Part shown: piece by piece, positions 5,661 to 56,561 of the stretch | How the letters are laid out: each line of letters begins with the position of its first letter | How positions within the stretch are numbered: position 1 is the stretch's first letter | Source of the DNA: Aestuariispira insulae | GTDB lineage: Bacteria > Pseudomonadota > Alphaproteobacteria > UBA8366 > Aestuariispiraceae | Direction of reading: 5' to 3' | Length of the DNA: 64,000 nucleotides | Assembly: GCF_003385955.1 (NCBI RefSeq) | Contig: NZ_QRDW01000011.1 | Location: 62,001-126,000 of the forward strand | The notes under the pieces: generated by a model | The model's database searches: none | Seen by the model: only the letters and a program-made list of their open reading frames with translations | What the model was told of the DNA's origin: nothing | Made by a program: the position numbers and the translations under genes

Positions 5661-7561
5661 GTGGCAAACAAAAAAATTCCGGCCGACCGACGGCCTGGCG
5701 TTTGTTCGTGAACAACCGGCTGGCCCTTTCCGGTTTAGTGATCCTGTCGGTCATAATTCTGCTGGCCCTTTTGGCACCTATTCTGCCGCTTGCTTCACCC
5801 GATGAGACGGCCCCGGCTCAACGGTTGATCCGCCCTTTGGGGGATGGCTATCTGCTGGGCAGTGATCATCTGGGACGGGATCTCCTATCCAGGCTTCTCT
5901 GGGGGACGCAGGTTAGTATCGCGGTCGGGCTGTCGGCCACCATTGTTGCTGCTTTTTTTGGTTCCCTGATCGGCCTGGTTGCGGGTTATGCCGGGGGCAA
6001 GGTGGACAATAGCCTGATGCGGGGCATCGATATGGTGATGGCCTTCCCCTATATCCTGCTGGCTTTGGCCATTGTTGCGGCTTTGGGGCCGGGTTTGATG
6101 AATGCGCTTTATGCCATCGCGGTCGTCAATATCCCCTTCTTTGCCAGGAACATCCGGGGGGTGACTCTGGGCCTGGCGCGCCGTGAATTTGTCGATGCGG
6201 CCAGGCTTTCCGGCAAAGGGCATATCCGCATTTTGCTGACCGAAATTCTGCCCAATGTTTTACCGACCATCGTGATCACCATGTCGACCACGGTGGGATG
6301 GATGATCCTGGAAACGGCGGGTTTGAGCTTTTTGGGCCTTGGTGCGCAACCGCCGCAGGCGGATCTGGGTTCCATGTTGGGTGAGGGGCGCAAGCTGCTG
6401 TTCACCGCACCGCATGTGTCGATCATACCGGGGCTGATGATCTTTTTGCTGGTGATGAGCATCAACCTGATGGGGGACGGCATCCGCGATGTGCTGGATC
6501 CCAGGCTGAAATCGGGCGCTCTGAGTCGGCCCATGGCCAAGACGGAAGACGCCAGGAATATTACTCCTGGCAACCGGGATCAGAAAACCGGCACGGCGAT
6601 GGAAGTCATGAATTTGCGCACTGAGTTTCAGGTCGGGCAGGAAATCTACAAAGCCGTTGGTGGTGTGTCTTTTGATCTGAGGCCGGGAGAGTGTTTGGGG
6701 CTGGTTGGTGAATCAGGTTCCGGAAAATCTGTAACCGCCATGTCCCTGTTGGGGCTGGTGCCGACACCGCCGGGCAGGATTGCCGGTGGCGAGGTTCGCT
6801 ATGAAGGGGAAGATCTGCTGGGCGCATCGCTCTCCCGGTTGCAATCCCTGCGTGGCGGTAAAATTGCCTATGTGTTCCAGGATCCGCTCTCGACCCTGCA
6901 TCCGCTGTTCACGGTGGGGGACCAGATCTGTGAGGCCATCCGCGCGCATCAGCCGCTAGGCCGGGCGGAAGCCTGGAAGCGGGCGGTCGAACTGTTGAAC
7001 AAAGTACGCATTCCCAATGCGGAACGGCGGGCCCATGATTACCCCCACCAAATGTCGGGTGGCATGCGCCAGCGGGTCGGCATTGCCATGGCGCTGGCCA
7101 ATGATGCCGAAATCCTGGTGGCGGATGAGCCGACCACGGCCCTGGATGTTACCGTTCAGGCGCAGGTGCTGAAACTGTTGAAGGAATTGCAGCGGGAAAG
7201 TGATGCGGCGCTCTTGTTCATCACCCATGATTTTGGTGTGGTGTCTGAAATCTGTGACCGGGTGGCCGTTATGTATGCGGGACGGATTGTCGAGGTTGGC
7301 AGCACCGATCAGATCCTGACCCGGCCCGCCCATCCCTATACCCGGAAGCTGATTGATTGTGTGCCGGTGATGGGACGCCGGGAAAAACGGCTGGAGGCGA
7401 TAGCGGGTCTGCCGCCGGTTGTGAACCGCCTGCCCGCGGGCTGTGCCTTCGCCGACCGGTGTGAGGCGGCGGATGACGATTGCCGGAAAGGAGAGCTGTT
7501 GCTGGAAGAAATGTCGGACAGGCACGCGGTGCGCTGTCGCAAGGCAAAGGAGGCTGCCTGA
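5657..7561 (+). CDS. Fused peptide-type permease (DppC) and ATPase (DppD)
   Basis: A 634-residue fusion of two transporter subunits that are usually separate. Residues 1-290 form a DppC-family permease with a membrane start ([20 protein letters not shown]), [16 protein letters not shown] at about 70 and an EAA-like loop at about 180. After a polar linker, residues 315-634 form a complete ATPase: Walker A GESGSGKS (about 355), signature MSGGMRQR (about 472), Walker [13 protein letters not shown] (about 490), switch His in THDFG, and the Cys-containing C-terminal tail of the oligopeptide ATPase family (CAFADRC). No stop or frameshift is visible at the junction. Permease-ATPase fusions are known in this transporter class. 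It overlaps the next gene by one base. Confidence 0.9.
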
Positions 7562-8568
7562 TGGATGCGACAATATTGGAAGCGAAACAGCTGGTGCGCA
7601 CTTTCGGGGGAGGGCGCACACTCTTTGGCCGGGAGAAACCGGGGGTTCATGCTGTCAGAGAGATGGAGTTGCAGGTCCGGCGGGGCGAGACGCTGGGGAT
7701 TGTCGGGGAATCCGGATGTGGCAAATCCACGCTGGCCCGGATGCTTGTGGGGCTGGACAGTCCCACGTCCGGTGACATCTATCTGGAAGGCGCAGCCATG
7801 GATACCCAGTCCGCCCGTCAGCGGCATGACCTGGCCAAACGGATTCAGTATGTGTTTCAGGATCCTGTCAGCTCATTGAACCCGCGCAAGACCATCCGTG
7901 CTTCCCTGGAAGCGCCGATGATCCATCTTTTGGGGCTTGATCGTGATGCCCGGCGCCGAAGACTGGATGAATTGATGGATGCGGTCAATCTACGCCCGGA
8001 ATTCCTGGATCGGTATCCGCATGAATTTTCCGGTGGTCAGGCGCAACGGATCGGTATCGCGCGTGCACTTGCCGCACAACCGGAAATCCTGGTGCTGGAC
8101 GAACCTGTCTCGGCGCTTGATGTGTCCGTTCAGGCGCAGGTTTTGAACCTTCTGGCTGATTTGAAGGATAAATACGGCCTGACCTATATCTTCATCAGTC
8201 ATGACCTTTCTGTGGTTGAAGCGGTTAGTGACCGGGTTATGGTGATGTATTTTGGTTCGGTGGTGGAACTGGCGGAGTCGGAAAGCCTGTTCCGGCAGCC
8301 CCGGCATCAATATACGAAGCTGCTTTTTGATTCCGTGCCGCTGCCGGGGAAAAGGGGTGTCCGGGGCGAAGACGGGTTGGCGGAACTGCCGGATCCGCTG
8401 AACCCGCCCAAGGGCTGCGCCTTTGCACCCCGTTGCGCTGAGGCCTCACAACAGTGTAGAGAGGCGATGCCACCGTTAAACCCGGTGGTGGATATTCAGC
8501 ATTACACCGCCTGTTACCATCCTGTTGGTACCGGGCCCCAGGAAAGTCAAAATACGCGTGACCAGTGA
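7561..8568 (+). CDS. Peptide-type ABC transporter ATPase (DppF family)
   Basis: A 335-residue ATPase from the ATG at 7561, which overlaps the previous stop codon (TGATG) and gives the usual DppF-family N terminus. Motifs present are Walker A GESGCGKSTL (about residue 50), Q-loop YVFQDP, signature FSGGQAQR (about 160), Walker B LVLDEPVSALD and the switch His in ISHDLS. The C-terminal oligopeptide-transporter extension (CAFAPRC) is also present. It should pair with the ATPase half of the fused protein. Its 3' end overlaps the regulator gene by about 11 bases. Confidence 0.92.
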   Translation: MDATILEAKQLVRTFGGGRTLFGREKPGVHAVREMELQVRRGETLGIVGESGCGKSTLARMLVGLDSPTSGDIYLEGAAMDTQSARQRHDLAKRIQYVFQDPVSSLNPRKTIRASLEAPMIHLLGLDRDARRRRLDELMDAVNLRPEFLDRYPHEFSGGQAQRIGIARALAAQPEILVLDEPVSALDVSVQAQVLNLLADLKDKYGLTYIFISHDLSVVEAVSDRVMVMYFGSVVELAESESLFRQPRHQYTKLLFDSVPLPGKRGVRGEDGLAELPDPLNPPKGCAFAPRCAEASQQCREAMPPLNPVVDIQHYTACYHPVGTGPQESQNTRDQ

Positions 8569-9352
8569 TAAAAACGACGGGTTGGAGCGGGGATCGCTTT
8601 CTGCGCCGCGCAAACCGCGTAAGCGCACCGACGAAATCTGTGACCGTATCAAGGACTGGATCGTCGAGCGGGATATGCAGCCCGGTGACCGATTGCCACA
8701 GGAACCGGATCTGATCCGGGAGTTTGAAGCGTCCAAGGGCACGGTGAGGGAATCACTGAAATCCTTGGAAACCCAGGGTTTGATTAAAACCCGTACCGGA
8801 CCGGGTGGCGGGGCGTTTGTTGCCGATATCGACGGCGGTCGGGCGATGGAATTGCTCGCCAACTTCTTTTTTTTCCGCCAGCCAACCATCTCCGATATTT
8901 ACCAGCTGCGCCGCCGCCTGGAACCGGACTTGGCCGTTAGTGTAATCGGTCTGTTGAAGGATGAGGATTTTAAGCGCTTGGAAGACACGTTGCGGCTCTA
9001 TGATCATCCGCCGGAAAATCGGGGTGAAGAATATGAACAACGCCTCGCGGAGCTGGATTTCCATACGGTTTTGGCAGAATTATGCCCCAATCCCTTGTTG
9101 GGGTTCTTTTGCGGATTCCTGCAGAATCTTTTGCGCAACCAGACTGTTTGCCAGCATATCTATGAAAAACCCAATCCGGAATTGCGGCAGCATGCCCTGC
9201 ATTATCAACTGCGCCTGCTTCAGGCATTGAAAGCTGGAAATGCGGAAGCCGCCCGTGAGATCATGTTTGAGCATATGTGTGCTGCCCAGGCCTATATGGA
9301 AAGCTGCGAGGCCGAGATGAAACGTGGTTTTCTGCGGGTAGGGGATAAGTGA
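8558..9352 (+). CDS. GntR-family transcriptional regulator, FadR/FCD subfamily
   Basis: About 264 residues. An N-terminal winged helix (TDEICDRIKDWIVERDMQPG, then EASKGTVRESLKSLETQGLI) is followed by an all-helical FCD ligand domain with conserved His and Asp positions (DFHTVLAELCPNP; HALHYQLRLLQALKAGN). The start is uncertain: GTG at 8558 or a TTG at 8525 are the candidates, both overlapping the ATPase gene. Being last in the ABC operon, it probably controls this operon and the divergent hydrolase through the inverted repeat at 2991-3032. FCD regulators usually bind small organic acids, which fits an amino-acid derivative as inducer. Confidence 0.85.
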   Translation: MTSDKNDGLERGSLSAPRKPRKRTDEICDRIKDWIVERDMQPGDRLPQEPDLIREFEASKGTVRESLKSLETQGLIKTRTGPGGGAFVADIDGGRAMELLANFFFFRQPTISDIYQLRRRLEPDLAVSVIGLLKDEDFKRLEDTLRLYDHPPENRGEEYEQRLAELDFHTVLAELCPNPLLGFFCGFLQNLLRNQTVCQHIYEKPNPELRQHALHYQLRLLQALKAGNAEAAREIMFEHMCAAQAYMESCEAEMKRGFLRVGDK

Positions 9353-9440
9353 TTCCCAATTGAAACCGACAGGATTTATCAGTTTGTTAAAACCTCCGCC
9401 GTCATAATCGAGCGTGAGGAAAACACTGACTGAGGCAGAA

Positions 9441-10010
9441 ATGACCATGGCGGCTGAATGCCTGCAAGCGGCCCGGAAACTGGATATCCTTCATGAGGAT
9501 AACCGGTTATTCATGGAAAAATGGTTTGCCCTTCGCGGGAGGCGTATCATGCCGGATAAATCGGCATTTCGTCCGGAAGAGGTACCCAAACTGCTCTCCA
9601 ACCTTATCCTTCATGAATTGGAGGCGCCGGATCGGATCCGGATCCGTCTTGTCGGCACACGGTTGGTGGAAAAATACGGTGGGGATGTCACCGGTCGGAA
9701 CTACCTGGAATTCGTGGCTCCCGACCGGCAGGAGAAAGCGTCAGAGGCCTTGTGGCTGATGGGCCATCATCCAGTTGGCATGCGGGTTATCCTCCTGCAG
9801 AAGCAGTCCAGCGGACGGACGATCTATTCGGAGGCGATGGGCTTTCCATTTGAGGATAAGATTTCAGGCCATAGAATGTTACTGTTTCACAGCAACCTGA
9901 TTGATTCGGTCAAAATCCATGAGTTGATCGATGACCAGCTCCTGAAATTCAATGTCGCACGGCGCGATTTCATCGATATCGGCAATGGTATCCCGGATTT
10001 CTCGGACTGA
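9441..10010 (+). CDS. PAS-domain protein (PAS_5 type), function unknown
   Basis: About 189 residues from the ATG at 9441, which follows GAGG; a GTG at 9414 would add nine residues. The protein consists of one PAS-like fold of the PAS_5 type common in alphaproteobacteria. Visible signs are the segment LILHELEAPDRIRIRLVGTR, then YGGDVTGRNYLEFV and a C-terminal strand MLLFHSNLID. No enzyme, DNA-binding or output domain accompanies it. Members are usually orphan single-domain proteins, and their ligand and partner are not known to me. It separates the transporter operon from the synthase cluster and is probably outside both. Confidence 0.75.
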   Translation: MTMAAECLQAARKLDILHEDNRLFMEKWFALRGRRIMPDKSAFRPEEVPKLLSNLILHELEAPDRIRIRLVGTRLVEKYGGDVTGRNYLEFVAPDRQEKASEALWLMGHHPVGMRVILLQKQSSGRTIYSEAMGFPFEDKISGHRMLLFHSNLIDSVKIHELIDDQLLKFNVARRDFIDIGNGIPDFSD

Positions 10011-10162
10011 GTGCGGTTGCAAACCAAACCATCCGCTATCCTTCACGCATTAGACAAAAGGCTTAAGCCGCAGACGGGATTTAGACGCTTGCAAAAACCG
10101 TTCGGGACAAAGAATCTGTCAGGACGATCTGCGGTCATGATCCGAAACAGGGAAGGATAGAA

Positions 10163-10930
10163 ATGTCGATGCGGACAGACTGGTCTGCCTATGCGCGGCT
10201 TTTTAAGACTAAACCCGACAAGCGGCGCTTAAATGTGCTGTTCCTTCCGCAGGCGGGCGGCGATACCAGCCTGTATAACCGCTGGCAGCCAGCATTATCG
10301 CCTCATATTCAGGTAATGCCGGTGCAATTGCCCGGGCGTGGTGCCCGGCTTGGCGAGGCGGGGCCGGACAACATGGATCAGGTCATGGAGCTACTTTTGC
10401 CGGCGATGCCGGCTTTTGAAGGCGCGCCCTATATCCTGTTCGGGTCCAGCATGGGCGGATGGATTGCCTATGAATTATGTCTGCAACTGATGGCGACGGG
10501 CCTGGCCAGGCCTGAGGCGTTGTTCATCTGCGCCTCCAATGATCCTTATGCCAAGAGGCGGCTGCCGGATCTCGAAGGAAAAGACCGTGCGCAGCAGGTC
10601 GCGGCACTGACGGCCTTTAATCCGGGCTTTGCCGAGGTTGCTGCCAGTGAGGAATTGCTGGATCTGCTGTTGCCGACCATCCAGTCCGATTTTCGCATCT
10701 GCCGCAGCTACCAGCCATCCAGCCGTGAAAGGACCCCGGTACCTGTACATGCCTTTGCCGGTGAGAGGGATCAGATTGTGCCGATGGAAAACATGACCGG
10801 TTGGCAACAGTTGGCGGCGGGCCCCTATCACCTGGATCAAGTGCCGGGTGATCATTTTTTCATTGAAGAGAAACCGGCGCTGATATGCGAACGGTTGATC
10901 CGGCATGCAGGGGTGTTGGCGCTTTCATGA
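10163..10930 (+). CDS. Type II thioesterase of the NRPS/PKS cluster
   Basis: A 255-residue alpha/beta hydrolase of the type II (editing) thioesterase family. The family start NVLFLPQAGGDTSLYNRW, the strand VMPVQLPGRGAR, the nucleophile motif FGSSMGGWIAYEL (Ser at about residue 97), the Asp in GERDQIVP and the His in GDHFFIEE are all present. These proteins remove wrong acyl groups from carrier domains of megasynthases. ATG 10163 is preceded by AAGGA. Its stop overlaps the phosphopantetheinyl transferase start (ATGA), and it converges on the four synthase genes, so both genes are helpers of that cluster. Confidence 0.9.
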   Translation: MSMRTDWSAYARLFKTKPDKRRLNVLFLPQAGGDTSLYNRWQPALSPHIQVMPVQLPGRGARLGEAGPDNMDQVMELLLPAMPAFEGAPYILFGSSMGGWIAYELCLQLMATGLARPEALFICASNDPYAKRRLPDLEGKDRAQQVAALTAFNPGFAEVAASEELLDLLLPTIQSDFRICRSYQPSSRERTPVPVHAFAGERDQIVPMENMTGWQQLAAGPYHLDQVPGDHFFIEEKPALICERLIRHAGVLALS

Positions 10931-11631
10931 CGGGTTCAATCGGTCAATGGTACTTGCAACTGCGATCTCGTTGGCAGGCTCTGCAAGCCCGCCCCGAGAT
11001 TGCCCTGCTGGCGGTGGTTCCTATCGAGGCGCCGGGACCGCCAGAGGGGCAGTTGCTGCCGGAAGAACAGGACCGGCGGGATCGCTATCGCTTTGACCGG
11101 GACCGGAATGCCTATGCCCATGGCCGTCTGCTGGTCCGCTGGTTATTGATGGGTGATGGAGAAACCCGGTCCTTTTCCGTTGGTGAGAATGGCAAACCTT
11201 TTCTGCCAGGCAGTGCAGAATTCAATATTTCCCACGGGGCCGGACTGGTTGCGGTGCTGTTCAGTCGCGCTGGCGCGGTGGGGGTGGATGTTGAGGCGCT
11301 CGCCAAGATGAAACGGCATGAAAATCTCCATGATATGGTCTGCCACCCCAATGAGCGGCAATGGATTGAAGAACAGGGGGCGGATAAGGGCAGGGAAGCC
11401 TTCCTGAAATGCTGGACCCGCAAGGAAGCACTGCTGAAAGCGACCGGACAGGGCATCTTAAATGATCTGCCTTCCCTGAATACCTGCCTTGATGATGATA
11501 TGCCGGACACCCATCTGGCAAGCGGGCATCGGTTGCGGGATATGGCGTTGCCCTTTGATGGGGTTGGCTGCGCCATCGCCATTCCGGAGGGTGTCCGCGA
11601 TGTTGAACTGGCCTGCCTGGATCTTGACTAG
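10927..11631 (+). CDS. Sfp-type 4'-phosphopantetheinyl transferase
   Basis: A 234-residue protein that converts apo carrier domains to the holo form by adding phosphopantetheine from CoA. The Sfp-family motifs are visible: GKPFLPGSAEFNISHGAG, the magnesium site GVDVE (about residue 120) and the WTRKEALLKATG helix (about 165). The ATG at 10927 is chosen because it overlaps the thioesterase stop (ATGA) and gives a normal N terminus; the frame opens upstream at 10885. The megasynthases at 11660-43855 carry nine carrier domains that need this activation. It ends 28 bases from the stop of the convergent gene. Confidence 0.92.
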   Translation: MTGSIGQWYLQLRSRWQALQARPEIALLAVVPIEAPGPPEGQLLPEEQDRRDRYRFDRDRNAYAHGRLLVRWLLMGDGETRSFSVGENGKPFLPGSAEFNISHGAGLVAVLFSRAGAVGVDVEALAKMKRHENLHDMVCHPNERQWIEEQGADKGREAFLKCWTRKEALLKATGQGILNDLPSLNTCLDDDMPDTHLASGHRLRDMALPFDGVGCAIAIPEGVRDVELACLDLD

Positions 11632-11653
11632 AAAGGTATAACACTGATGGGTG

Positions 11654-11674
11654 GCCCGGTCAGGCTGACCGGGC
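11654..11674. terminator. Perfect 9-bp hairpin between convergent genes (possible bidirectional terminator)
   Basis: GCCCGGTCA at 11654-11662 pairs exactly with 11666-11674 around a 3-base loop. It spans the stop of the large synthase gene and follows the transferase gene by 22 bases. Neither side has a T-run, so intrinsic termination is uncertain; it could instead be an mRNA 3'-end stabiliser. Confidence 0.35.
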
Positions 11675-14600
11675 AATCTCCACCTGTTCAATCATCTGAG
11701 CGATGCGCCCGATTTGCGGCATGGTCATGATGGAGTAATGATCCGCCGCCATTACATGCGCGTCAAAAATACCGGTCAGTTTGGCGCGCCATAACTGTAG
11801 GGCGGTTTCCATCTTGATCGGCGTGGGAGCCATGCCGCTGGCCTTTTCCGCGGCCAGGAAGACCGTTGCCCTGGTCCGGTTCAGCGTGGAAAGCTGGTGG
11901 CCGGTCATGCTGGCGATATTGGCCTTGCAGCAACGGATGAGGGCTTCCGCATACCGGGCAATCCCGTCCGGCAATCCGGCCTTGGATAGATCCGCCAGTG
12001 TTTCCAGACTGCCTGCGGCTGGCCACCTCTGGGATAATTCCCGAAGGAAAACGGTCTCAATTTCCCGGTCGGTCATCAGTTCCATTGGTACCTGTTGGCC
12101 GGGGGCGGGTGGATCGATCAACGTGATTGCCGCCGCCGGGGGAGCACCTTTTTCCAGGAGAGCTGCCATTTCCTGGGCAATCCAGGCACCAAAGGACCAG
12201 CCGATCAGATGCCATTGGTAGTCCGCTGCAGGAAATTGATCCTCCAGGGCCTCACGATAGAGCCTTGCGCGTTCCGGGATTGATAACGGATGTTCCTGGT
12301 CACGTCGCAATCCCGGATCTGCAATCACACAGACATGACAATGGCCGCCAAGGCGCCCTGCCAGTTCACGATAGGCTTCCACATCACCGCCAACGGGGTG
12401 AATGAGGCAGACAGCCTGGTTGCTGTGGCCTCGTTGCCAGACATCAATGTCAATGGTTGGCAGGGTCGGATCAGCTGTATTCTCCGCTTCCAGATTGCTG
12501 TCCGCCATATTCCCGGTTGCCTGTTCCAGGAACCAATTGATGGTCGCATCCTGGGGAATCTCGGAAAGTTGCAGTTCCGCCCCACCCTGTTTTTCAAGAT
12601 AGGCGACCACCTCCAACATCGTCAGTGAATCCGCACCCAAGTCATAGAGAAGCGCTTCGCTGGCAAGCGTATCCAAACCAAGTTCCTCGCAGAGCAAATC
12701 GCGTAAACCCTGTTCCAGGGAGGGCTGATGACTGCCTTCGGACGTTTGGGTCTCCTGTTTCAATGAGAGTTCCAACAGCGTTTCATTTGCTGTGGAATTG
12801 GATTGGTAGAAATAACTGCTTTCTTCCAGGTCGCAGACATTGATGGCGATCTGGGCTGCGTCCATGGTCATGGCCTGATCAAAACAGAAAACTGCTTCGT
12901 CATTGCCAAGACCCACGGACAGATGGTCCTGATGACGTTTGTCCGGGCGCCTGACATTGACCGCCATGCCACTTTCCCGCCAGGCATCCCAATTCAAACT
13001 GACTCGCCGACAATGGGGATGGTCCGGATGGCGGATATGGGCAAATCCATCCATCAATGCATTGGTTGCTGCATAATCCATATGACCTGCCCCGCCGAAA
13101 TGTGCGGTCATGGAGGAACAATAGACCGCCCAGTCCGGTTTCAACTGGGCAATTAGTTTTTCCATATGAGCCAGTCCAGCCAGTTTAGGGGCACAGGCGA
13201 TCCGCATGGCTTCAGGATCACGACCCGATATCAGGGCCCCGGCCCCGGCTCCAGCGGCATGGATGATGCCGGCCAATCGTTTCCCGCCTAAGGCCTGCCG
13301 AATGGCCGGTAGCTGATCATCCAACCCGATGTCGCCGGTAATGACTGTGATCCGGTCGCTCCAATCCGCGAGATCCGGATGCAGCTCAGGCCGCCGGGAT
13401 AGAATTAGGATCCCGTCAGCGCCTTGGTTCAACAGATGGCGTGCCAATGTCCGGCCGATGCCGCCATTGCCACCAAGGATCAGCCAGTTGTCCGATATAT
13501 GAAGCGCGCGGTTATTCTGCTCAACCTTGGTGAGGGTGCGTTCAAACCAACGGCCGTCGCGATACATCAGGCATCCGCTGCGGTGGGCAAGGCCGTCTAA
13601 TAGATCGGGTAGCAAGGATGCCAGGGCCCTTTCAGACATGGCGGGCAGGTCCAGCCAGTTGGCCGCGATACCATATTCCTGAGGGATTACCTGCACCGGC
13701 CCGGCCAGCAGCCAGGGAAGCGGTTTGGCAATGGGGCCGGCCTGACGGTGCGCATCCTGACTCAGGAAAGATATTTTCGCAGGCTTTAACCCGGATTGCA
13801 GCAGGGCCGAAGGCATATCCAGGCTGGTGAGCATCCCCTCAGACATGGTTGCGGACGGCTGCAGTGTTGTGGGCAGGAGATTTAGACAGTGGAACCCGTC
13901 GGACAGGCAATCTGTTAACTGTCTCCAATGGGCCGGGTCGGCAGGATTGAGCGAATAATGGTCTTCCCGTATGAACTGGAAACCATCGCCCGGGCTCACA
14001 AACATCAGTTTATCAATGGGACCGGCCAGTGATTGTTGGATGGACGCGCGGGCCTCCTCCGGGCAAAGAATCATCCATGTTCCGGGTTTCGCAAGCGGAA
14101 GGGATGAGCTGTCAGCTAACGGCATCCATTTCGGGCGGTAGAACCATTGATCCTTTGGCAGGCGTTTCGGACATTCTGCGGTTGCATCCAGGCTGCGGTT
14201 GTCGTTGAAATGATAGCGCGCCAGGTCAAAGGGATAGGGGGCAAATCCATCGGGCGCCTGTGCCGGTTGAACCGGCCAATCAATGGGGGCGCCATCGATC
14301 CAGGCCTCAATCAGATGACCTGTGGACGCATTCGTTGCCATCAAGGCGGCCTCGGTATCCGAGGCTTTTTTTTGGGAAATCCGCACCGGTTCTATCTCGG
14401 ATAATTGCCGGATAAGATCGTCCAGGCTGCTCACCTTAATCGCAGCGCGCCAATCATGATGTATCCGCCCGGACTGGAAATGACGCAACAAGGCAGGCAG
14501 GTTCTCCGGATGTTGGACGAGATAAGTGCTTATCTGCCCGACAAGGACGTCAAATGCAGGCTTGCTATGGGCGGAGATGGGCAGGACCGCGATCGGCTCT

Positions 14601-44384: not shown

Positions 44385-45632
44385 ATGTCGGTGCCGGAAA
44401 AAATTGATCCTTGGCGGGTGGCTGCCGGGCTGTCCGGTGCGGCGAAGGTTCTGCTGTTCGGCACATTTTGTGCGCGATTGTTTTCCTTTATGATCTGGCC
44501 GTTTTTCGCCGTGATGATGACACGTAAGTTTTCAACACCGGTGACGGAGATCGGTTGGCAATTTTCCATTGCGGCAGTGATCGCGATATTCGCCGCGCCG
44601 GTGAGTGGCATGCTGGCGGACCGGTTTGGCCGGGTCGTGATCATGGTAATTGCCGGATTTGTGGCGATTATCAGTTATCTGGCCATGTATTTCATTGGAA
44701 CCGAACAGGCGTTGTTGACCTGTATCTTGTTGAGTGCACTGGCCAGCGGAAGTCTGGAACCGCTGCTCCGCTCCCTGCTGGGGGATTGTGCCAGTCGTGA
44801 TGAAGAACGCCCCGTGCTGTTTCACATCCGCTATTACATCATCAATTTTTCCGTGGCCGCCGGGCCTTTGGCCGGGATGTGGTTTGCAGACCACGGCCTG
44901 GACGGTGTCTTTTTGCTCGGCGCATTGGGGAATGCCATTTTGCTGGTTTCCATGATGGTGGCCAGTGCCCATAGCCGGGGCGGGTGTGACAATGGTGTTT
45001 CCGGTAATCCAGGGATGAAGGCAGCGACGGTAGCCTTCCTGCAAAACCGGTTTTTCCTGACCCTGTTCCTGTCCAATTTTTTCTTGGTTTTCCTGTACGC
45101 GCACACCGACGAACCGTTGACTTTCTACCTGATTACACAAGGGATCGAAGGCATTACCGGCGTGATTGCATCGATCAATCTAACCAATACACTGGTGGTT
45201 CTGGCGGCGCATTTATTCTTGTTGAAATGGCTGCTGATGCTGGATGAGCATCGGGCCTATTGCCTGGCGTTTTTCTTTCTCGCGGCTGGGCTGGCATTAA
45301 TCAGTGTCAACAGCGCCAACCTTGTCTGGGTCTGGCTTGTGGCCATTGGCCTGGCCACGCTGGCGGAAATCATCGCGATGCCGTTGCTGGCGACCTTGAT
45401 CGACCGTGAAGCCCCGAAGAAGTATCGCAGCAGCTATGCAGGCCTTTATATCATGTCCAACCTGGGCGGAGCGGCGGTGCCTTTCCTGGGAGCCTTGGTG
45501 ATTGAAAAGGCGGGCGGTGATATTCTTTTTGCCGCCGTGGCCTGTGCCTGTCTGCCGGTTGGATTTATAGGATACCGCTTGCTGGGGAAATCCCGCAGCC
45601 TGCGAAAAAAATACGCGGAGGAGGCCGCCTGA
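44385..45632 (+). CDS. Major facilitator superfamily transporter, probable exporter of the cluster product
   Basis: A 415-residue membrane protein with about twelve hydrophobic segments and the MFS loop 2-3 motif GMLADRFGRVVIM (about residues 72-84). It starts divergently 529 bases from the first synthetase gene and is followed without a gap by two further genes (stop and start share the A of TGATG at 45632). The position argues for export of, or self-resistance to, the peptide product; no substrate can be read from sequence. No strong ribosome site precedes ATG 44385, although no better start exists upstream in frame. Confidence 0.85.
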   Translation: MSVPEKIDPWRVAAGLSGAAKVLLFGTFCARLFSFMIWPFFAVMMTRKFSTPVTEIGWQFSIAAVIAIFAAPVSGMLADRFGRVVIMVIAGFVAIISYLAMYFIGTEQALLTCILLSALASGSLEPLLRSLLGDCASRDEERPVLFHIRYYIINFSVAAGPLAGMWFADHGLDGVFLLGALGNAILLVSMMVASAHSRGGCDNGVSGNPGMKAATVAFLQNRFFLTLFLSNFFLVFLYAHTDEPLTFYLITQGIEGITGVIASINLTNTLVVLAAHLFLLKWLLMLDEHRAYCLAFFFLAAGLALISVNSANLVWVWLVAIGLATLAEIIAMPLLATLIDREAPKKYRSSYAGLYIMSNLGGAAVPFLGALVIEKAGGDILFAAVACACLPVGFIGYRLLGKSRSLRKKYAEEAA

Positions 45633-47398: not shown

Positions 47399-48268
47399 TC
47401 AGGCTTCCGGTTTCTGGCCCAGCAAAGTGATCCGTTCACCCGCCCGGTTCAGCGGATAATAATCCCAAATCGCGTGATGCTGGGTACAGCGATTGTCCCA
47501 AAGAACCAATGTGCCGGGCTGCCACCGGATGCGGCAGTTGAGCGCTTGAATTTTTTCAGGCAGCGCAAAGAGGAACGCGAGCAGATGGTCGCTTTCAGCG
47601 GGGCTCAGCTGGGGGATATGGGTGGTGAAGCCGCCATTAACAAACAGGCATTTGCGCCCGGTTTCCGGATGGCGGACCACGGCCGGATGCTCGGCCTTGG
47701 GCAGGCCCGGCGGTGCTTCAAATCCTCTCCAGGGAACCGCGCCATCATGGATGGCGGTCAGCCCATCGAGCAGCCCGCGCATGGCTGGTGACAGCATCTC
47801 ATAGGCCAGATGCATATTGGCAAACAACGTGTCGCCGCCAGCCCCGCCTTCTGGGGTTTCATGCATATAGAGCATGGATCCCATGGAAGGGGCCTCTTCT
47901 GCGGTGCCGTCGGTATGCCAGACGGCGCCAGCCACATAACGAGATCGTTTGCTGGCACGGATCAGGGTGATTTCCGGATCATCGCCGTCAATATCCTCTA
48001 CCGGCAGGGCGCGCAGCTCGCCAAACAGCCGGCCGATTTCCTTGTGACGTTCCCGGTTCAATTCCTGGTTCCGGAAGACCAGAACATGATTTTCCAGCCA
48101 GGCCTGGCGCAATTGGTCGACGGTCTGCTCATTAAGCGGCTGCGCCAGATCCAGACCGGTGATTTCAGCGCCGATGACCGGTGTCACGGGGGAAAGGCCA
48201 AAGGCGGTGAAGCGGGTCCGGTGCCGTTGGGTTTGGCGTTCCAATGCTTCCAGCGCAAATTCATCCAT
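47399..48268 (-). CDS. TauD/TfdA-family Fe(II)/2-oxoglutarate dioxygenase
   Basis: A 289-residue enzyme of the TauD/TfdA family. The iron-binding HxD is visible in WHTDGT (about residue 118), the distal His in CTQHHAIWDY (about 263), and a downstream Arg for 2-oxoglutarate in NRAGERITLLG. Members hydroxylate taurine, alkyl sulfates or amino-acid-like substrates; some sit in NRPS clusters as beta-hydroxylases. It is 17 bases downstream of the unrecognised gene at 48286 and may be the last gene of the PLD-EndoU run, or may modify the peptide or its precursor. An AGAGAAAGAGA stretch precedes the ATG. It converges with the SGNH-like gene at a 35-base distance. Confidence 0.88.
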   Translation of the reverse strand: MDEFALEALERQTQRHRTRFTAFGLSPVTPVIGAEITGLDLAQPLNEQTVDQLRQAWLENHVLVFRNQELNRERHKEIGRLFGELRALPVEDIDGDDPEITLIRASKRSRYVAGAVWHTDGTAEEAPSMGSMLYMHETPEGGAGGDTLFANMHLAYEMLSPAMRGLLDGLTAIHDGAVPWRGFEAPPGLPKAEHPAVVRHPETGRKCLFVNGGFTTHIPQLSPAESDHLLAFLFALPEKIQALNCRIRWQPGTLVLWDNRCTQHHAIWDYYPLNRAGERITLLGQKPEA

Positions 48269-48285: not shown

Positions 48286-48903
48286 CTAACGATCGGTCTG
48301 AGCGGCTTTTAGCCGTGTCATGGCCATTTGGTGGCGCTGATCAAATTCTGACGGCAGGAAGGCACCGGCATAGGCCGCGGCGCAGGCCCGGACAATGGCT
48401 GTCTGGCTTTCCCAATCCGTGCGGGGGGCTGAGGCCGGATCAGCGAGGAAGGCCGTTAAGCGGCGGGCATGGACCTTGGCATTTGCAGCGGCAAAGGCCT
48501 TCCGGCAAGCCCTGGCATTCAGATCGGCGTAATAGTCGCTATAAGCCTTGGCGCTGCCAAAGGCATCATCGATCATTTTCTTATTCTGCCCGGCATAATC
48601 GCTGGCGCTTGCGTAGGCCTTGTCATAGCTGGTCTGATAGGGGAAGGCGGCAGTGAAGAGCGCTGAGAGCATATCTTCCAGATCCTGATTGGCCTGCGCA
48701 AAATCGACCTCTTGTCCCGAAAGCCGGGCGCGATGATGGTCTGTCACCCGGTCCAGTGCTTGGCTTAGATCCCCATGCAGGGCAAGTGTTTCCGACAGCA
48801 TCGGCAGGAAGTTCTCCAGATGCCAGCGGTGAAAGCCGGTATTTGCATTATCCGGACCGGCATTGCCGGACACGGTTTGATCCCCTGTAGGCAAAAGGCT
48901 CAT
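48286..48903 (-). CDS. Unrecognised helical protein between EndoU and dioxygenase genes
   Basis: About 205 residues from the ATG at 48903; an upstream ATG at 48960 would add 19 residues and lacks support. I recognise no family. The protein looks soluble and mostly helical, is rich in Ala, Asp, Tyr and His, and has no signal peptide or membrane segment. Notable stretches are GFHRWHLENFLPML near the N terminus, which resembles the short helical segments of metal-binding helical bundles, and SYDKAYASASDYAGQNKKM in the middle. It lies 91 bases after the EndoU gene and 17 bases before the dioxygenase gene on the same strand. A partner or inhibitor of the neighbouring nucleases is possible but unsupported. 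Confidence 0.6.
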   Translation of the reverse strand: MSLLPTGDQTVSGNAGPDNANTGFHRWHLENFLPMLSETLALHGDLSQALDRVTDHHRARLSGQEVDFAQANQDLEDMLSALFTAAFPYQTSYDKAYASASDYAGQNKKMIDDAFGSAKAYSDYYADLNARACRKAFAAANAKVHARRLTAFLADPASAPRTDWESQTAIVRACAAAYAGAFLPSEFDQRHQMAMTRLKAAQTDR

Positions 48904-48994
48904 TCCCCCGTTGCAACGACCAATTGTGATTTCTTGTTGCGGAAACGGTATCCGCGTCACGGGGGAAGATCAACGCCCTATTTAAGAAACGGTC

Positions 48995-50272
48995 CTAAGG
49001 GAAGAGGATCGGTCGGCCTTCCGCTGCAGACTGATCGCGGGTATAGCTGGCGACCTGTGCGATATCCCCGTCCGGTGTCTGCAACAGAATTTCTCCGCCT
49101 CTGTTTCTAAGCACGCCCTGGCCGGTGGGCAGTGTGAATTTGTAGATATCCCCTGCAGAAAGCTGGATATCCGCCAATTCAAACCGCATGCCGTTGGGTG
49201 CGACGATTCTCCAGCCGGCAAGCGTATTAGATTGCGCGCCAATATTGGCTATTTGGAGGAATTCCCGTCCGCCCTCCGGGTTGGTGGGGTTGATCATCCC
49301 GGCCAGGATTTTGAAATCCGGATTGTCGGCTGATCTGTTGTTATCCTGCTCACCATTGCCGTGGGATAGATCATCAATAATCACGGTGTCGGAACGGATG
49401 AAGCGCGGGAAAAATGTCCTGATCGCATTTGGTTCCCCATCGAGGCGATGCAGATCCAATTGGTATCGGGAACCATTGATGTTGGCGATCTTGCCGCTTT
49501 GTGTCCTGGCCCGCACCAGGCCGAGTGCCATCAAGCCTTCGGGGCTCAGCCCGACAAAGAAACCGCCTATGGGCTTCTCCAATGTCCGGCCTTGACCACC
49601 ATCGCCGGCCGGTGCGTTCCAGATCAGGGACAGGGTGACAACTTCGGGCACCAAAATGCCCTGGCCTGGTTGCTCGGCACCGCCATATTGGGTGCCGCGA
49701 TATTCAATCCGGTCCACGCCCGTCACGCCATCAAACCGGCGGCCCGCATCATCAAGATGGTATTTGTGCCAATAGTGATAGCCGCCGACCTTGGACGGGC
49801 GGCTAGACTGTTCACCAACGAAGACATGTTCAAAGCCGGTGGCGTCACGCTGGTTTCCGGCATTACCAAATTTGAACCATGTTTCGTGGATCATGCGGGC
49901 CAGGGTTTCATCACTGATGGAGAGATTTTGCGATTGCTCGATATAGGTCTTTGCCCGCTGAATGGGCGGGGTTGGCAAGATGGCCTGGACGAAATCAATC
50001 TCTTCTTGTCGCTCTTCCGGGCGGATGACCTCTGTTGCGGCCCGTTCAAGCGCGTAATTGTCGAGAACCGCCTGGCATAGCCGGTAGGTTGGACGCTTGG
50101 CCTCCGGAATGTGAACCTCTGCCAGTACTTTATGGTTGGTGCCAACAGTGGTGCTGCGCTCATCCACGACCACATAGCCGGTCGCCTCATCTTTTTGCTC
50201 ATCAGGCCGTAGGGCGGGAACACCGTTGCCTGCCATGTCGGCATTCCATATTTCCTGAAAAATATCATCCAT
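48995..50272 (-). CDS. EndoU-type endoribonuclease with C-terminal lamin-tail domain
   Basis: A 425-residue protein. Residues 1-290 align by eye along their whole length with eukaryotic XendoU-type poly(U)-preferring endoribonucleases: the start IFQEIWNADMAG, a helical region with AVLDNYALE, then GFEHVFVGE with His149, GGYHYWHKYHL with His166, and LEKPIGGFFVGLSPE with Lys233. These fit the two catalytic histidines, the lysine and the GxSPE motif. Residues 320-411 look like a lamin-tail (LTD) beta-sandwich (EFLQIANIG, LAGWRIVAPNG, LSAGDIYKFTL). It has no signal peptide and no toxin-delivery domain, unlike bacterial CdiA-type EndoU toxins. ATG 50272 follows GGGAG. It is 15 bases after the PLD-like gene. 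Cleavage of RNA at uridines is inferred from family. Confidence 0.85.
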   Translation of the reverse strand: MDDIFQEIWNADMAGNGVPALRPDEQKDEATGYVVVDERSTTVGTNHKVLAEVHIPEAKRPTYRLCQAVLDNYALERAATEVIRPEERQEEIDFVQAILPTPPIQRAKTYIEQSQNLSISDETLARMIHETWFKFGNAGNQRDATGFEHVFVGEQSSRPSKVGGYHYWHKYHLDDAGRRFDGVTGVDRIEYRGTQYGGAEQPGQGILVPEVVTLSLIWNAPAGDGGQGRTLEKPIGGFFVGLSPEGLMALGLVRARTQSGKIANINGSRYQLDLHRLDGEPNAIRTFFPRFIRSDTVIIDDLSHGNGEQDNNRSADNPDFKILAGMINPTNPEGGREFLQIANIGAQSNTLAGWRIVAPNGMRFELADIQLSAGDIYKFTLPTGQGVLRNRGGEILLQTPDGDIAQVASYTRDQSAAEGRPILFP

Positions 50273-50287
50273 CAGATTTGCTCCCGA

Positions 50288-51997
50288 TCAGCGATAAAGA
50301 TTGCGAAGGCGGTCATGGTATGAACCGGCATTGAAATGGCGCGCGACCCAACGATCATCCGGCTCCAGGATGGCGGCACGGCGTGGATTGCCGGTGCCGG
50401 AAAGCGCGCGCCGCACGGCGACGGTCCGGAAATAGAGATGGTTGAAAAGGCGCATGAACTCGGTCAGATAAATCTGCGCGACCTGTTTATAATCCGGTCC
50501 ACGCATGAGCAGCATATTTTCGTCATTACCCTCGACCGACGGGTCCGAAAAATTGGCAGAGCCGGAAAAGATCTGCGGGTTTTCAGACAGCGCATCCAGC
50601 AGCATGAATTTGGTGTGGATGTAAAAGACATGCCCCCGTGTTCGGAAATGTTCTTCCGCCCGGAACCATTCATCCAGCCGGTATCCGTTGATCTTTTTGC
50701 TGATGGCGGTGCTGTTCAGTTTGGTGCCGAGCGCAATGCGGGTATCGCGATCGGTCATCAGGCGGGCCTGATCTTCTCGGTCCCGCCGTTCCATGAGGAT
50801 GAATCGGAGGTAATCCTTGTCTTCCTCGAAAATCTCGACCAGTTGATCGGCAACACCAAAAGCGGCGGTAAACATCACGCTGTTTTCCGCTTTGTCCATT
50901 TCGCGGGCAATCCATTCCAGAAGCCCCTTTTTCCGGGGAGAGAACATGGTCTGGATCGAATTTTCATGCAATGTGCCCTCGGGGTCTGGAAAGGCTGTAT
51001 TGTTGAATCGTTTGAAATCCCGCGTGCCAGGATCCCTGGCCAATTGTTTCCAATAGCGGTTATACCGTTCAGCCACCCCGGGATCCCGCACCACATGGGC
51101 AACGTTGCTCTGCCCCAGAAAACCGGACGGGGTGATGTTGGTTGATCCCGTCAGGATCTCGATCGGTTGGTCATCTTTAAGCAGGACAAAAAACTTGTTG
51201 TGCGGAATTTTGGAGAACATGGTGCGCGGGTGAAGTGTCAGATTCGCCACCTGATTCAGCCGCATTGTTTCAACGGCGGCTTTGTTGGCGGTGCTGGTAT
51301 TGTTATAGGTGATGGTGCCGTCCCGTTTGCGGTCGCCCCCGTCATAACAGACCTGTATTTTGGCTCCCGTTCCGGCAGCGGCTTTCAGGGCTTCGATGAC
51401 AGGCGGGTAAAAGAATTCATAGGCCGCCACGCGCAACTCGTACCGGGGGCCGTTGGCCGATCGAATGAAGGTTAGAACCGCGTCGAGCAATCCGCGGGAA
51501 AGCCATTTCACTTTCTCATTGTCCGGATCGTTCATTTCGTCGCCGCTTGGCCCGACATTGCCAAAACGGTCCGCAAAGGCCTGGGAGGGAATGGCACCAC
51601 GATTAAAAAACACCGAATGTTGGTCGGATTCGTCATTGCCTGTGGTGGCGGAAATCTCAATCTCGGGACCATAACTCAGATCCGTGGGCGAACCATACAC
51701 CGCTTGAATGACATAATCTGTCGTCGTGGCCGGTTCTGCGCCGTAATCTCCCCACTGAAATCCCTGGATCGGATGTTCGCGTGTTGAACGCCTTTCCCCC
51801 GGCTGGGGATCGGGAACCGTCTCCTCAAAGAACTTGAACCCGCGCATCCATGATATCTGCCCGGAACCTGGATTTCTCTTGCCGAGCGTGAAACCAAGCA
51901 GCCCCTGTTGGGCTTGTGGTGTTGCGTCAAAGCCAAAAAGCACATTCCTGGCCCCGGCGATGGCATGTACGCTGATCCCGTTTTTCTCAACTCTCAT
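50288..51997 (-). CDS. Phospholipase-D-superfamily protein (two HKD motifs)
   Basis: A 569-residue protein of the PLD superfamily. The first motif is HNKFFVLL (about residue 264) followed by TGSTN. The second is HTKFMLLD (about 459) followed by SGSANFSDPSVEGNDEN, so both catalytic half-sites look complete, although the acidic residue of the first is replaced. The first 130 residues are a beta-rich domain I do not recognise. PLD-superfamily enzymes include phospholipases, cardiolipin synthases and nucleases. There are no membrane segments, which speaks against cardiolipin synthase. Being 15 bases upstream of an EndoU gene favours a nucleic-acid or membrane-damage role (inference). AGGGGG precedes the ATG. 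Confidence 0.83.
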   Translation of the reverse strand: MRVEKNGISVHAIAGARNVLFGFDATPQAQQGLLGFTLGKRNPGSGQISWMRGFKFFEETVPDPQPGERRSTREHPIQGFQWGDYGAEPATTTDYVIQAVYGSPTDLSYGPEIEISATTGNDESDQHSVFFNRGAIPSQAFADRFGNVGPSGDEMNDPDNEKVKWLSRGLLDAVLTFIRSANGPRYELRVAAYEFFYPPVIEALKAAAGTGAKIQVCYDGGDRKRDGTITYNNTSTANKAAVETMRLNQVANLTLHPRTMFSKIPHNKFFVLLKDDQPIEILTGSTNITPSGFLGQSNVAHVVRDPGVAERYNRYWKQLARDPGTRDFKRFNNTAFPDPEGTLHENSIQTMFSPRKKGLLEWIAREMDKAENSVMFTAAFGVADQLVEIFEEDKDYLRFILMERRDREDQARLMTDRDTRIALGTKLNSTAISKKINGYRLDEWFRAEEHFRTRGHVFYIHTKFMLLDALSENPQIFSGSANFSDPSVEGNDENMLLMRGPDYKQVAQIYLTEFMRLFNHLYFRTVAVRRALSGTGNPRRAAILEPDDRWVARHFNAGSYHDRLRNLYR

Positions 51998-52354
51998 TGA
52001 TTATCCCCCTGTGGATTGACCCGCGCCGCCAAGATGCCGACCGCCCTTTGTAAACAGCCACTGGGGGTATGCTTGATGAACATATACCCGTATGAAGGAA
52101 CCTAGTCGGGATCGAATTTGGAATTCTATCTCTTTTTCCGCTTATTTTCTACCAAAATACAGATATAGGTTGTGTTTGTTTCTTAAGTTTTTATGACATG
52201 TGAGAGCTGGAGAACGGAGCCGTCAGTGCTGTTTTCCTTTAAGCCAGGGGGCACCGTTGACGGGCGGTTCTGGTGCCGGAGGTCCGGAAAGGGGCCCTTC
52301 GGTTTAGGTGAAACCTTGCGGGGGGCCTCCTCTCCGGTAGGGCCTTACCAATGT
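51998..52354. other. Intergenic region upstream of the PLD-EndoU run
   Basis: 357 bases with no supported gene. It separates the 3' end of the epoxide-hydrolase-like gene from the start of the PLD-like gene, both on the minus strand. The middle (about 52110-52200) is A/T-rich against a GC-rich background and probably contains the leftward promoter. The part at 52240-52345 is G/C-rich with partial inverted repeats that could end transcription of the hydrolase gene, but no stem with a T-run is convincing. Confidence 0.5.
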
Positions 52355-53386: not shown

Positions 53387-54094
53387 ATGAAGAATCATCA
53401 ACGCCGAGATGCCATCATTCGAAATTTGCGCCGTAACGGGTCTTCGACCGTTGCGGCACTGGCGCAAGATGTCGAGGCGTCAACACGCACTGTCCTGCGT
53501 GATATCGGGGTATTGCGAGATGAAGGCTATGTGATCCATTCGGAGCCTGGGCGTGGGGGCGGCCTGTATCTTGATCCGCAATCCGTCCAAACGACGGCGC
53601 GCTTGTCCGTGGCTGAGGTGTTTGCATTGCTCATCAGCGTTGCGAGTATGCGGGCGGCGGGCATGTTTCCCTTCTCCGGCCTGGCGGATGAGGGGCTTGC
53701 CAAAATTGAAAAATCACTGCCGGCCGATAAGGTCCGGGATCTTCGCCGTTTCCTGGATTGCCTGTATGTGGGCAGGCTCGCACCTCAGGTCGATCTCTCC
53801 GATCTGGGGCCGATGGATCCGGGGCTTTTGCCCGCGTTTGAAGCAGCCTTTCTGCAACGGCGTTATCTCCGCTTCCAATACCGTGATGCAAAAGGTGTTA
53901 GAAGCGCGCGCCAGATTGAGCCTCAGGCAATGCTGATCCTGCCGCCGGTTTGGTATCTGGTGGCCTGGGATCCGGCCCGAGACGATTTCCGGCATTTCCG
54001 GATGGACCGGATCAGTGCCCCGGAAATAGTGGAAGGATCAATGTTCCGTCGTCGGCACGTGGTTTTTGATGATGGGGTGCGCCCGGTCCGGTGA
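53387..54094 (+). CDS. HTH/WYL-domain transcriptional regulator (YafY type)
   Basis: A 235-residue regulator. The N-terminal winged helix (about residues 5-60) has RRDAIIRNLRRNGSSTVAAL and STRTVLRDIGVLRDEGYVI, typical of HTH_11/DeoR-like YafY proteins. The C-terminal WYL domain has PVWYLVAWDP and FRHFRMDRI, where the family's WYL motif and conserved Arg sit. WYL domains usually sense nucleic acids or small ligands; in this single-gene arrangement a small-molecule sensor for the divergent hydrolase is more likely (inference). The expected binding site is the palindrome at 53346-53366. Confidence 0.88.
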   Translation: MKNHQRRDAIIRNLRRNGSSTVAALAQDVEASTRTVLRDIGVLRDEGYVIHSEPGRGGGLYLDPQSVQTTARLSVAEVFALLISVASMRAAGMFPFSGLADEGLAKIEKSLPADKVRDLRRFLDCLYVGRLAPQVDLSDLGPMDPGLLPAFEAAFLQRRYLRFQYRDAKGVRSARQIEPQAMLILPPVWYLVAWDPARDDFRHFRMDRISAPEIVEGSMFRRRHVVFDDGVRPVR

Positions 54095-56471: not shown

Positions 56472-56561
56472 TGGCGGAGAGACAGGGATTCGAACCCTGG
56501 GTACTCGCAAGAGCACAACGGTTTTCGAGACCGCCCCGTTCGACCACTCCGGCACCTCTCC
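56472..56561 (-). tRNA. tRNA-Ser(CGA)
   Basis: Read on the minus strand, the 5' acceptor strand GGAGAGG (from 56561) pairs with TCTCTCC before discriminator G and an encoded CCA (56474-56472). The anticodon loop CTCGAAA sits on a 5-bp stem and gives anticodon CGA (codon UCG). A long variable arm, as in class II tRNAs, follows, and the T arm has the usual GGTTCGAATCC. The length including CCA is 90 bases. Confidence 0.95.

What the first reader, a model, noticed from the sequence alone, without database searches (positions are those of the whole stretch)
48286..51997. Eukaryote-like EndoU fused to a lamin-tail domain, paired with a PLD-superfamily protein
The full-length XendoU fold with His149, His166 and Lys233 plus GLSPE is of the eukaryotic type, not the C-terminal toxin type of contact-dependent systems, and it carries a lamin-tail domain that may bind nucleic acid, membrane or another protein. 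Directly upstream (15 bases) is a PLD-superfamily protein with two HKD motifs and a novel beta-rich N-terminal region; downstream is an unrecognised helical protein. Two potential hydrolases of nucleic acid or lipid in one operon with an orphan partner could be a defence, competition or RNA-processing system. I know of no described system with this composition.
Basis: partly seen in the sequence, partly recalled or inferred. Interest (0 to 1): 0.7.

Follow-up and report, generated by a model that had tools for sequence, protein, structure and literature searches.

The report
PLD operon carrying eukaryote-type EndoU
A bacterial operon joins a phospholipase-D-type enzyme to an animal-type RNA-cutting enzyme with a C-terminal lamin-tail domain; relatives elsewhere carry a different head on a related tail and sit beside nuclease-protease conflict genes, so it looks like one form of an undescribed modular attack or defence cassette.

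Summary
The genes are as described: PLD (569 aa), 15 bp, EndoU-LTD (425 aa), 34 bp, a 224-aa orphan, all on the minus strand. EndoU is the full-length XendoU type: it aligns to XendoU 15-287, the helical extension called eukaryote-specific included, with H149, H166, K233, E148 and E154 invariant in 8 homologues. The claimed pairing is not conserved: none of 8 other EndoU-LTD loci has a PLD. A wider pattern is conserved. The PLD family recurrently neighbours DUF2278-LTD proteins, whose LTD is homologous to the EndoU one; another alphaproteobacterial genome (L069) has PLD, ~30 bp, DUF2278-LTD, then a third gene. One 303-aa family precedes EndoU-LTD in 4 loci and DUF2278-LTD in 2 (divergent in 1). 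In rhizobia EndoU-LTD is followed by an S8 protease and an LmuA/Avs1a-like MBL nuclease; PLD and DUF2278-LTD occur beside EAD5-trypsin and NucA-trypsin genes. So the window most likely holds a minimal PLD plus "X-LTD" effector cassette with an EndoU head, probably a conflict module. That function is inferred by association only; no protease or sensor lies nearby, and the orphan has no known relative. No description was found in the papers searched. Structure models were too poor to test the active site.

The parts
50288..51997 (-). PLD-superfamily protein, 569 aa, first gene of the cassette
   Evidence: PLDc_2 1.7e-19 in two stretches; homologues in 91 of 72,556 plasmid records, 87 with at least 80% of the length
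51605..51997 (-). N-terminal beta-rich, FnIII-like region (about residues 1-131)
   Evidence: DSSP of a moderate model; weak Foldseek matches to FnIII-bearing chains (insulin receptor, IFNAR2), E about 1e-3 to 1e-2
50438..51466 (-). PLD catalytic region (about residues 178-520) with two H-K / GSxN motifs
   Evidence: fold matches to PLD 7e0m, NucT, Nuc, Zucchini
48995..50272 (-). EndoU-LTD protein, 425 aa
   Evidence: PF09412 3.9e-34; homologues over the full length
49406..50260 (-). Eukaryote-type (XendoU) endoribonuclease domain, residues 5-289; H149, H166, K233
49001..49315 (-). Lamin tail domain, residues 320-424
48286..48960 (-). Orphan protein, 224 aa from a GTG (205 aa if it starts at the ATG at 48903), third gene of the cassette
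47399..48268 (-). TauD-family dioxygenase starting 17 bp after the orphan, same strand; possibly co-transcribed, membership in the module doubtful
   Evidence: PF02668 1.4e-58; gap
51998..52354 (-). 357-bp upstream gap, partly A+T-rich, with a G-rich ribosome-site-like stretch before the PLD ATG and one weak promoter-like match (52151-52123)
   Evidence: consensus matches only

Best explanation
The three genes are a minimal form of a modular effector cassette, PLD + 'X-LTD' (+ a third gene). The LTD is a carrier or docking domain on which different heads occur: EndoU here, in rhizobia, Nostoc and others; DUF2278 in more genomes. The EndoU head is most likely an active, uridylate-preferring endoribonuclease of the XendoU type, possibly Ca2+-dependent because it keeps the helical extension and E148/E154. 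The PLD most likely hydrolyses phosphodiesters of nucleic acid or lipid. Together they probably serve a conflict function inside the producing cell (growth arrest or killing on infection or damage). Shown: gene order, domains, catalytic residues, tail homology, recurrent neighbours. Inferred: activity, substrates, trigger, co-transcription, role of the orphan.
For: EndoU catalytic residues invariant in 8 homologues and full-length match to XendoU. Tail homology EndoU-LTD/DUF2278-LTD: 72 bits, 41-45% identity. PLD beside DUF2278(-LTD): 7 of 27 DUF2278 plasmid records have a PLD within 4 kb, against 0.15 expected for the 9 records seen to hold both (distance limit chosen after seeing the data); L069 repeats the window's order PLD, X-LTD, third gene. 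The 303-aa family precedes EndoU-LTD (L005-L008) and DUF2278-LTD (L053, L057). EndoU-LTD in 4 of 4 rhizobial plasmids is followed by an S8 protease and an MBL protein, the L005 one matching LmuA 7.5e-37 and Avs1a 1.3e-30, the class shown to be protease-gated anti-phage nucleases (PMC12799240). PLD or DUF2278-LTD beside EAD5-trypsin and/or NucA-trypsin genes in L013, L051, L057, as in the NucA-peptidase conflict systems of PMC7159879. Patchy spread over alphaproteobacteria, a cyanobacterium and a Saccharicrinis MAG, often on plasmids.
Against: No protease, EAD, NTPase or known defence gene was found next to the cassette in the window (genes within ~8 kb are MFS, GSCFA, TauD, hydrolase, WYL regulator, aminotransferase and two without Pfam match). 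0 of 8 other EndoU-LTD loci carry a PLD, and gene calls at G148 (the closest EndoU relative) and G661 show no obvious conflict genes nearby, judged by eye. Only 3 of 22 loci picked by PLD alone have DUF2278 within 5 kb, one of them a fragment; many PLD genes seem solitary. The LTD of the window is only 18-33% identical to DUF2278 tails, and the LTD tree does not show repeated swapping (EndoU and DUF2278 tails separate, 96/99). PADLOC gives only generic PLD similarity and one weak tail match.
Confidence: 0.45

Rival explanations
1. Intercellular toxins: EndoU-LTD and PLD are delivered to neighbouring cells by a secretion system, and the orphan is the immunity protein.
For: PLD relatives lie 2.4 kb from a VgrG gene in Piscinibacter and next to an RHS-repeat gene and a MafB19-type deaminase in L043. 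EndoU domains are known toxin heads in polymorphic toxin systems (recalled; PMC3482391 seen in the listing only). A small unique gene downstream fits an immunity gene.
Against: No signal peptide or membrane segment by hydropathy; no PAAR, VgrG, RHS, CdiB or other delivery gene noticed in the window (partly judged by eye from ORF starts). The heads are N-terminal and whole, not C-terminal cassettes. The small gene has no counterpart in the other loci.
Confidence: 0.15
2. The EndoU-LTD and PLD are separate, horizontally moving accessory enzymes that happen to be adjacent; no joint system.
For: Both families are patchy and mobile; 0 of 8 other EndoU-LTD loci have a PLD; L025, the closest PLD (54%), sits beside a transposase-like gene.
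Against: 15-bp spacing on one strand, and PLD followed at once by DUF2278 in L011, L016 (no LTD) and L069, the first and last with a homologous tail.
Confidence: 0.25
3. Ordinary RNA/nucleotide turnover or scavenging enzymes.
For: S1/P1 nuclease (L013, L054, L057) and RNase T2 (L010) genes occur near some relatives.
Against: Those nucleases look secreted by their N-termini (by eye), whereas EndoU-LTD and PLD have no leader; rarity and patchiness (2 of 385 class genomes) argue against a housekeeping role.
Confidence: 0.1
4. Accessory genes of the large NRPS cluster next door (window 11660-43855), co-transcribed with the TauD dioxygenase.
For: TauD starts 17 bp after the orphan; NRPS modules confirmed in two ORFs.
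Against: The NRPS genes are separated from the cassette by three plus-strand genes; I noticed no NRPS at the other PLD or EndoU-LTD loci, but did not search for it.
Confidence: 0.05

Closest known systems
XendoU / human ENDOU (Pfam PF09412)
   Same: Full-length domain with helical extension, His-His-Lys triad, E equivalents of human E284 and E290
   Different: Bacterial, no leader, fused to an LTD, beside a PLD
EndoU toxin domains of polymorphic/CDI toxins (PF14436)
   Same: EndoU-like core; weak 13.8-bit match
   Different: Those are small C-terminal heads with adjacent immunity genes (recalled); this one is a whole XendoU at the N-terminus
NucA-peptidase conflict systems (System 3 of Kaur et al. 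2020, PMC7159879)
   Same: Relatives of the PLD and of X-LTD lie beside trypsin-EAD5 and NucA-trypsin genes in alphaproteobacteria
   Different: The paper's main text has no XendoU, EndoU, PLD or phospholipase D; the window itself has no NucA or trypsin nearby
Protease-gated MBL nucleases of Hachiman, AVAST, Lamassu and Canu (Tuck et al. 2025, PMC12799240)
   Same: Rhizobial EndoU-LTD is followed by an S8 protease and an LmuA/Avs1a-like MBL
   Different: S8 instead of trypsin or caspase; extra EndoU-LTD and 303-aa genes; none of it in the window
DrmC / NucT / Zucchini-type PLD nucleases
   Same: PLD fold and H-K motifs
   Different: Longer protein with an FnIII-like N-terminus; no DISARM genes seen in the window

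Membership tests
XendoU endoribonuclease (PF09412) | Match over the curated cut-off along the whole domain | tested here: met
   118.5 bits against 32.3, profile 6-262 of 262
XendoU endoribonuclease (PF09412) | His-His-Lys triad and the E284/E290 equivalents of human ENDOU | tested here: met
   H149, H166, K233, E148, E154 invariant in 8 of 8; human residues from PMC11275989
XendoU endoribonuclease (PF09412) | Ca2+ site 3 Asp (human D179) in the helical extension | tested here: inconclusive
   Column placed by hand is variable; gaps make the position unsure
XendoU endoribonuclease (PF09412) | Catalytic geometry in a structure | tested here: inconclusive
   Model pLDDT 56.2, residues 152-241 under 50
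Lamin tail domain (PF00932) | Match over the curated cut-off | tested here: not met
   18.5 of 34.3 bits in the window protein; 30.1 in L005; homologous DUF2278 tail 40.4. LTD-like by homology, not filed as a member on score
PLD superfamily | Two HxKx4D-GSxN motifs | tested here: inconclusive
   Second motif complete; first lacks the Asp in all 13 homologues; PLDc_2 over cut-off
NucA-peptidase conflict system (System 3) | NucA endonuclease plus trypsin-like peptidase at the locus | tested here: not met
   Not found next to the window cassette; NucA-trypsin in L013 and L057, trypsin-EAD5 in L013 and L051
Protease-gated MBL nuclease pair | MBL nuclease plus partner protease | tested here: not met
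   None found in the window neighbourhood; present at L005-L008
Toxin-immunity pair | Immunity protein neutralises the toxin | not testable with these tools
   Needs expression; orphan not conserved

The most novel reading that the evidence does not exclude
PLD + X-LTD is an undescribed bacterial immune module in which a lamin-tail carrier accepts different catalytic heads, and the window's head is a calcium-gated, animal-type EndoU ribonuclease, so the gating extension thought specific to eukaryotes also works in bacteria, with Ca2+ entry on membrane damage as a possible trigger.
Probability: 0.2. Interest if true: 0.85.

Novelty: new variant of a known kind. Interest (0 to 1): 0.58.

Why it matters
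It puts a whole animal-type EndoU, including the extension that a 2024 preprint calls eukaryote-specific and ties to calcium control (PMC11275989), into bacterial gene neighbourhoods rich in protease-gated nucleases. If active, it would give a simple bacterial system for EndoU regulation, link another animal RNase family to bacterial conflict, and give DUF2278, a family that none of the searched papers mention by that name, a testable role as the alternative head.

Tried and rejected
Structure of the active site: models were shallow (EndoU pLDDT 56.2, PLD 62.1), so no claim on geometry; only the PLD model was searched against PDB. CYTH resemblance of the 303-aa family, seen by eye, was tested against CYTH-CHAD neighbours and not supported (hhalign probability 0.8%). 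CHAD as a partner: the window genome's only CHAD gene lies ~64 kb from the cassette, so dropped. DUF2278 elsewhere in the own genome: none. Phage origin: no EndoU-LTD or PLD in 50,697 phage records; one PLD viral contig. Repeats around the cassette: none. An empty site in relatives could not be shown, because the flanking TauD and hydrolase genes are themselves missing from the same-family genomes at the threshold used. Repeated tail swapping: the tree needs only one change.
Full report
Three minus-strand genes lie at the stated place, 15 and 34 bp apart, with a TauD-family gene starting 17 bp further on and an alpha/beta hydrolase 357 bp upstream. None of the three has a leader or a membrane segment by hydropathy.

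EndoU-LTD. The first 289 residues match Pfam XendoU with 118.5 bits. A profile of 8 bacterial sequences (the window's among them) aligns to Xenopus XendoU (2c1w) over residues 15-287 and to human ENDOU (9ftw). The triad H149, H166, K233 and also E148 and E154 are invariant in the 8 sequences. In human ENDOU these correspond to H285, H300, K343, E284 (a calcium-site residue whose mutation abolishes activity) and E290 (the bridge to the active site), according to passages and section 25 of PMC11275989, matched here by the alignment and by counting. That preprint describes the helical extension as eukaryote-specific; these bacterial proteins have it. The equivalent of calcium-site residue D179 could not be placed. 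Structure prediction was too poor to test geometry.

The tail. The LTD match is weak in the window protein (18.5 of 34.3 bits) but a profile built from the EndoU tails finds the tail of a Methylobacterium DUF2278 protein with 72 bits, and that tail passes the Pfam LTD cut-off. Used as a tblastn query, that DUF2278-LTD protein finds, by its tail alone, the five plasmid EndoU-LTD genes at 41-45% identity. In the tree EndoU tails and DUF2278 tails separate (96/99), so one exchange explains the data; rhizobial, G661 and Nostoc EndoU tails are nearer DUF2278 tails (36-52%, the divergent L058 set aside) than the window's tail (30-34%), while their EndoU heads are 42-44% identical to the window's.

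PLD. Both H-K and GSxN motifs are invariant in 13 homologues, though the first lacks the Asp. The model, of moderate quality (pLDDT 62.1), matches PLD, NucT, Nuc and Zucchini structures over the core and, weakly, FnIII-bearing chains at the N-terminus.

Distribution. XendoU: 2 of 385 genomes of the class and 2 of 398 of the phylum, the window genome counted in both. The full EndoU-LTD protein: 1 of 98 relatives, itself; 5 of 72,556 plasmid records; one Saccharicrinis MAG; none of 50,697 phage records and none in viral contigs. The PLD: 4 of 385 and 9 of 398, own genome counted, and 91 plasmid records.

Pairing. Eight other EndoU-LTD loci were examined (L003-L008, L023, L031); none has a PLD of this family in the stretch held, about 8-9 kb each side, much less for L003, whose contig ends inside the gene. 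In R. etli Mim1 a broken EndoU fragment lies about 430 bp beyond a PLD.

What is conserved. DUF2278 proteins matched 27 plasmid records once the five EndoU-LTD tail matches are taken out. In 7 of these a PLD lies within 4 kb; in 2 the listed places lie hundreds of kb apart (one of these records has a second, unlisted DUF2278 place); for the other 18 no PLD row was seen, but not all 91 PLD records were displayed. For the 9 records with both, 0.15 close pairs are expected by uniform placement and 7 were seen (the distance limit was set after looking, and the records are not fully independent). L069, found by the EndoU-LTD profile and not by PLD, has PLD, about 30 bp, DUF2278-LTD, then an alpha/beta-hydrolase-like gene, the window's layout with another head. 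Against this, of 22 loci picked by PLD alone only L011, L016 and a fragment in L015 have DUF2278 within 5 kb. A 303-aa family without Pfam match precedes EndoU-LTD in L005-L008, precedes DUF2278-LTD in L053 and L057, and is divergent to it in L051.

Conflict context. In all four rhizobial plasmids EndoU-LTD is followed by an S8 protease and an MBL protein; the L005 MBL matches LmuA at 7.5e-37 and Avs1a at 1.3e-30. Such MBL proteins were shown to be pro-nucleases opened by a partner protease in anti-phage systems (PMC12799240, outline and sections 3 part 1 and 8 read). L054 has an LmuA-like MBL (1.9e-10) beside DUF2278-LTD. L013 (PLD), L051 (DUF2278-LTD, PLD) and L057 (PLD, DUF2278-LTD) carry trypsin-EAD5 and/or trypsin-NucA genes, as in the NucA-peptidase systems of PMC7159879, where EAD1 rather than EAD5 is described (section 32 and passages read). 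The window itself has none of these close by.

Reading. The most likely account is a PLD + X-LTD effector cassette with an EndoU head, working inside the cell in a conflict or stress response; the trigger and the orphan's part are unknown. The rivals are chance adjacency, intercellular toxins, turnover enzymes and an annex of the neighbouring NRPS cluster.

Print. Searches for XendoU with lamin tail domain, DUF2278, and annotation names with defence island gave no papers; lamin tail domain with phage defense gave two, judged unrelated from the listing. The library is open-access only, so this is weak evidence of novelty.

Noticed in passing
window 11660-43855, minus strand: Large NRPS gene run (ORFs of 3065, 1386, 3466 and 2790 aa; condensation, adenylation and carrier domains confirmed in two of them) with a thioesterase at 10163-10930 and an MFS transporter at 44385-45632.
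   Followed up: partly
L005-L008, about 6974-12780: Conserved four-gene rhizobial plasmid run: 303-aa unknown, EndoU-LTD, S8 protease, LmuA/Avs1a-like MBL; looks like a protease-nuclease locus in its own right.
   Followed up: partly
L051 12133-12424, minus strand: Decayed EndoU fragment beside PLD, DUF2278-LTD, a 303-aa family gene and an EAD5-trypsin gene in R. etli Mim1 pRetMIM1e.
   Followed up: yes
window 53387-54094: HTH-WYL regulator divergent to the alpha/beta hydrolase upstream of the cassette; WYL regulators are known (recalled) to control some defence loci.
   Followed up: no
window 56472-56561: tRNA-Ser(cga) at the edge of the accessory stretch, a possible island border.
   Followed up: no
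   Followed up: no
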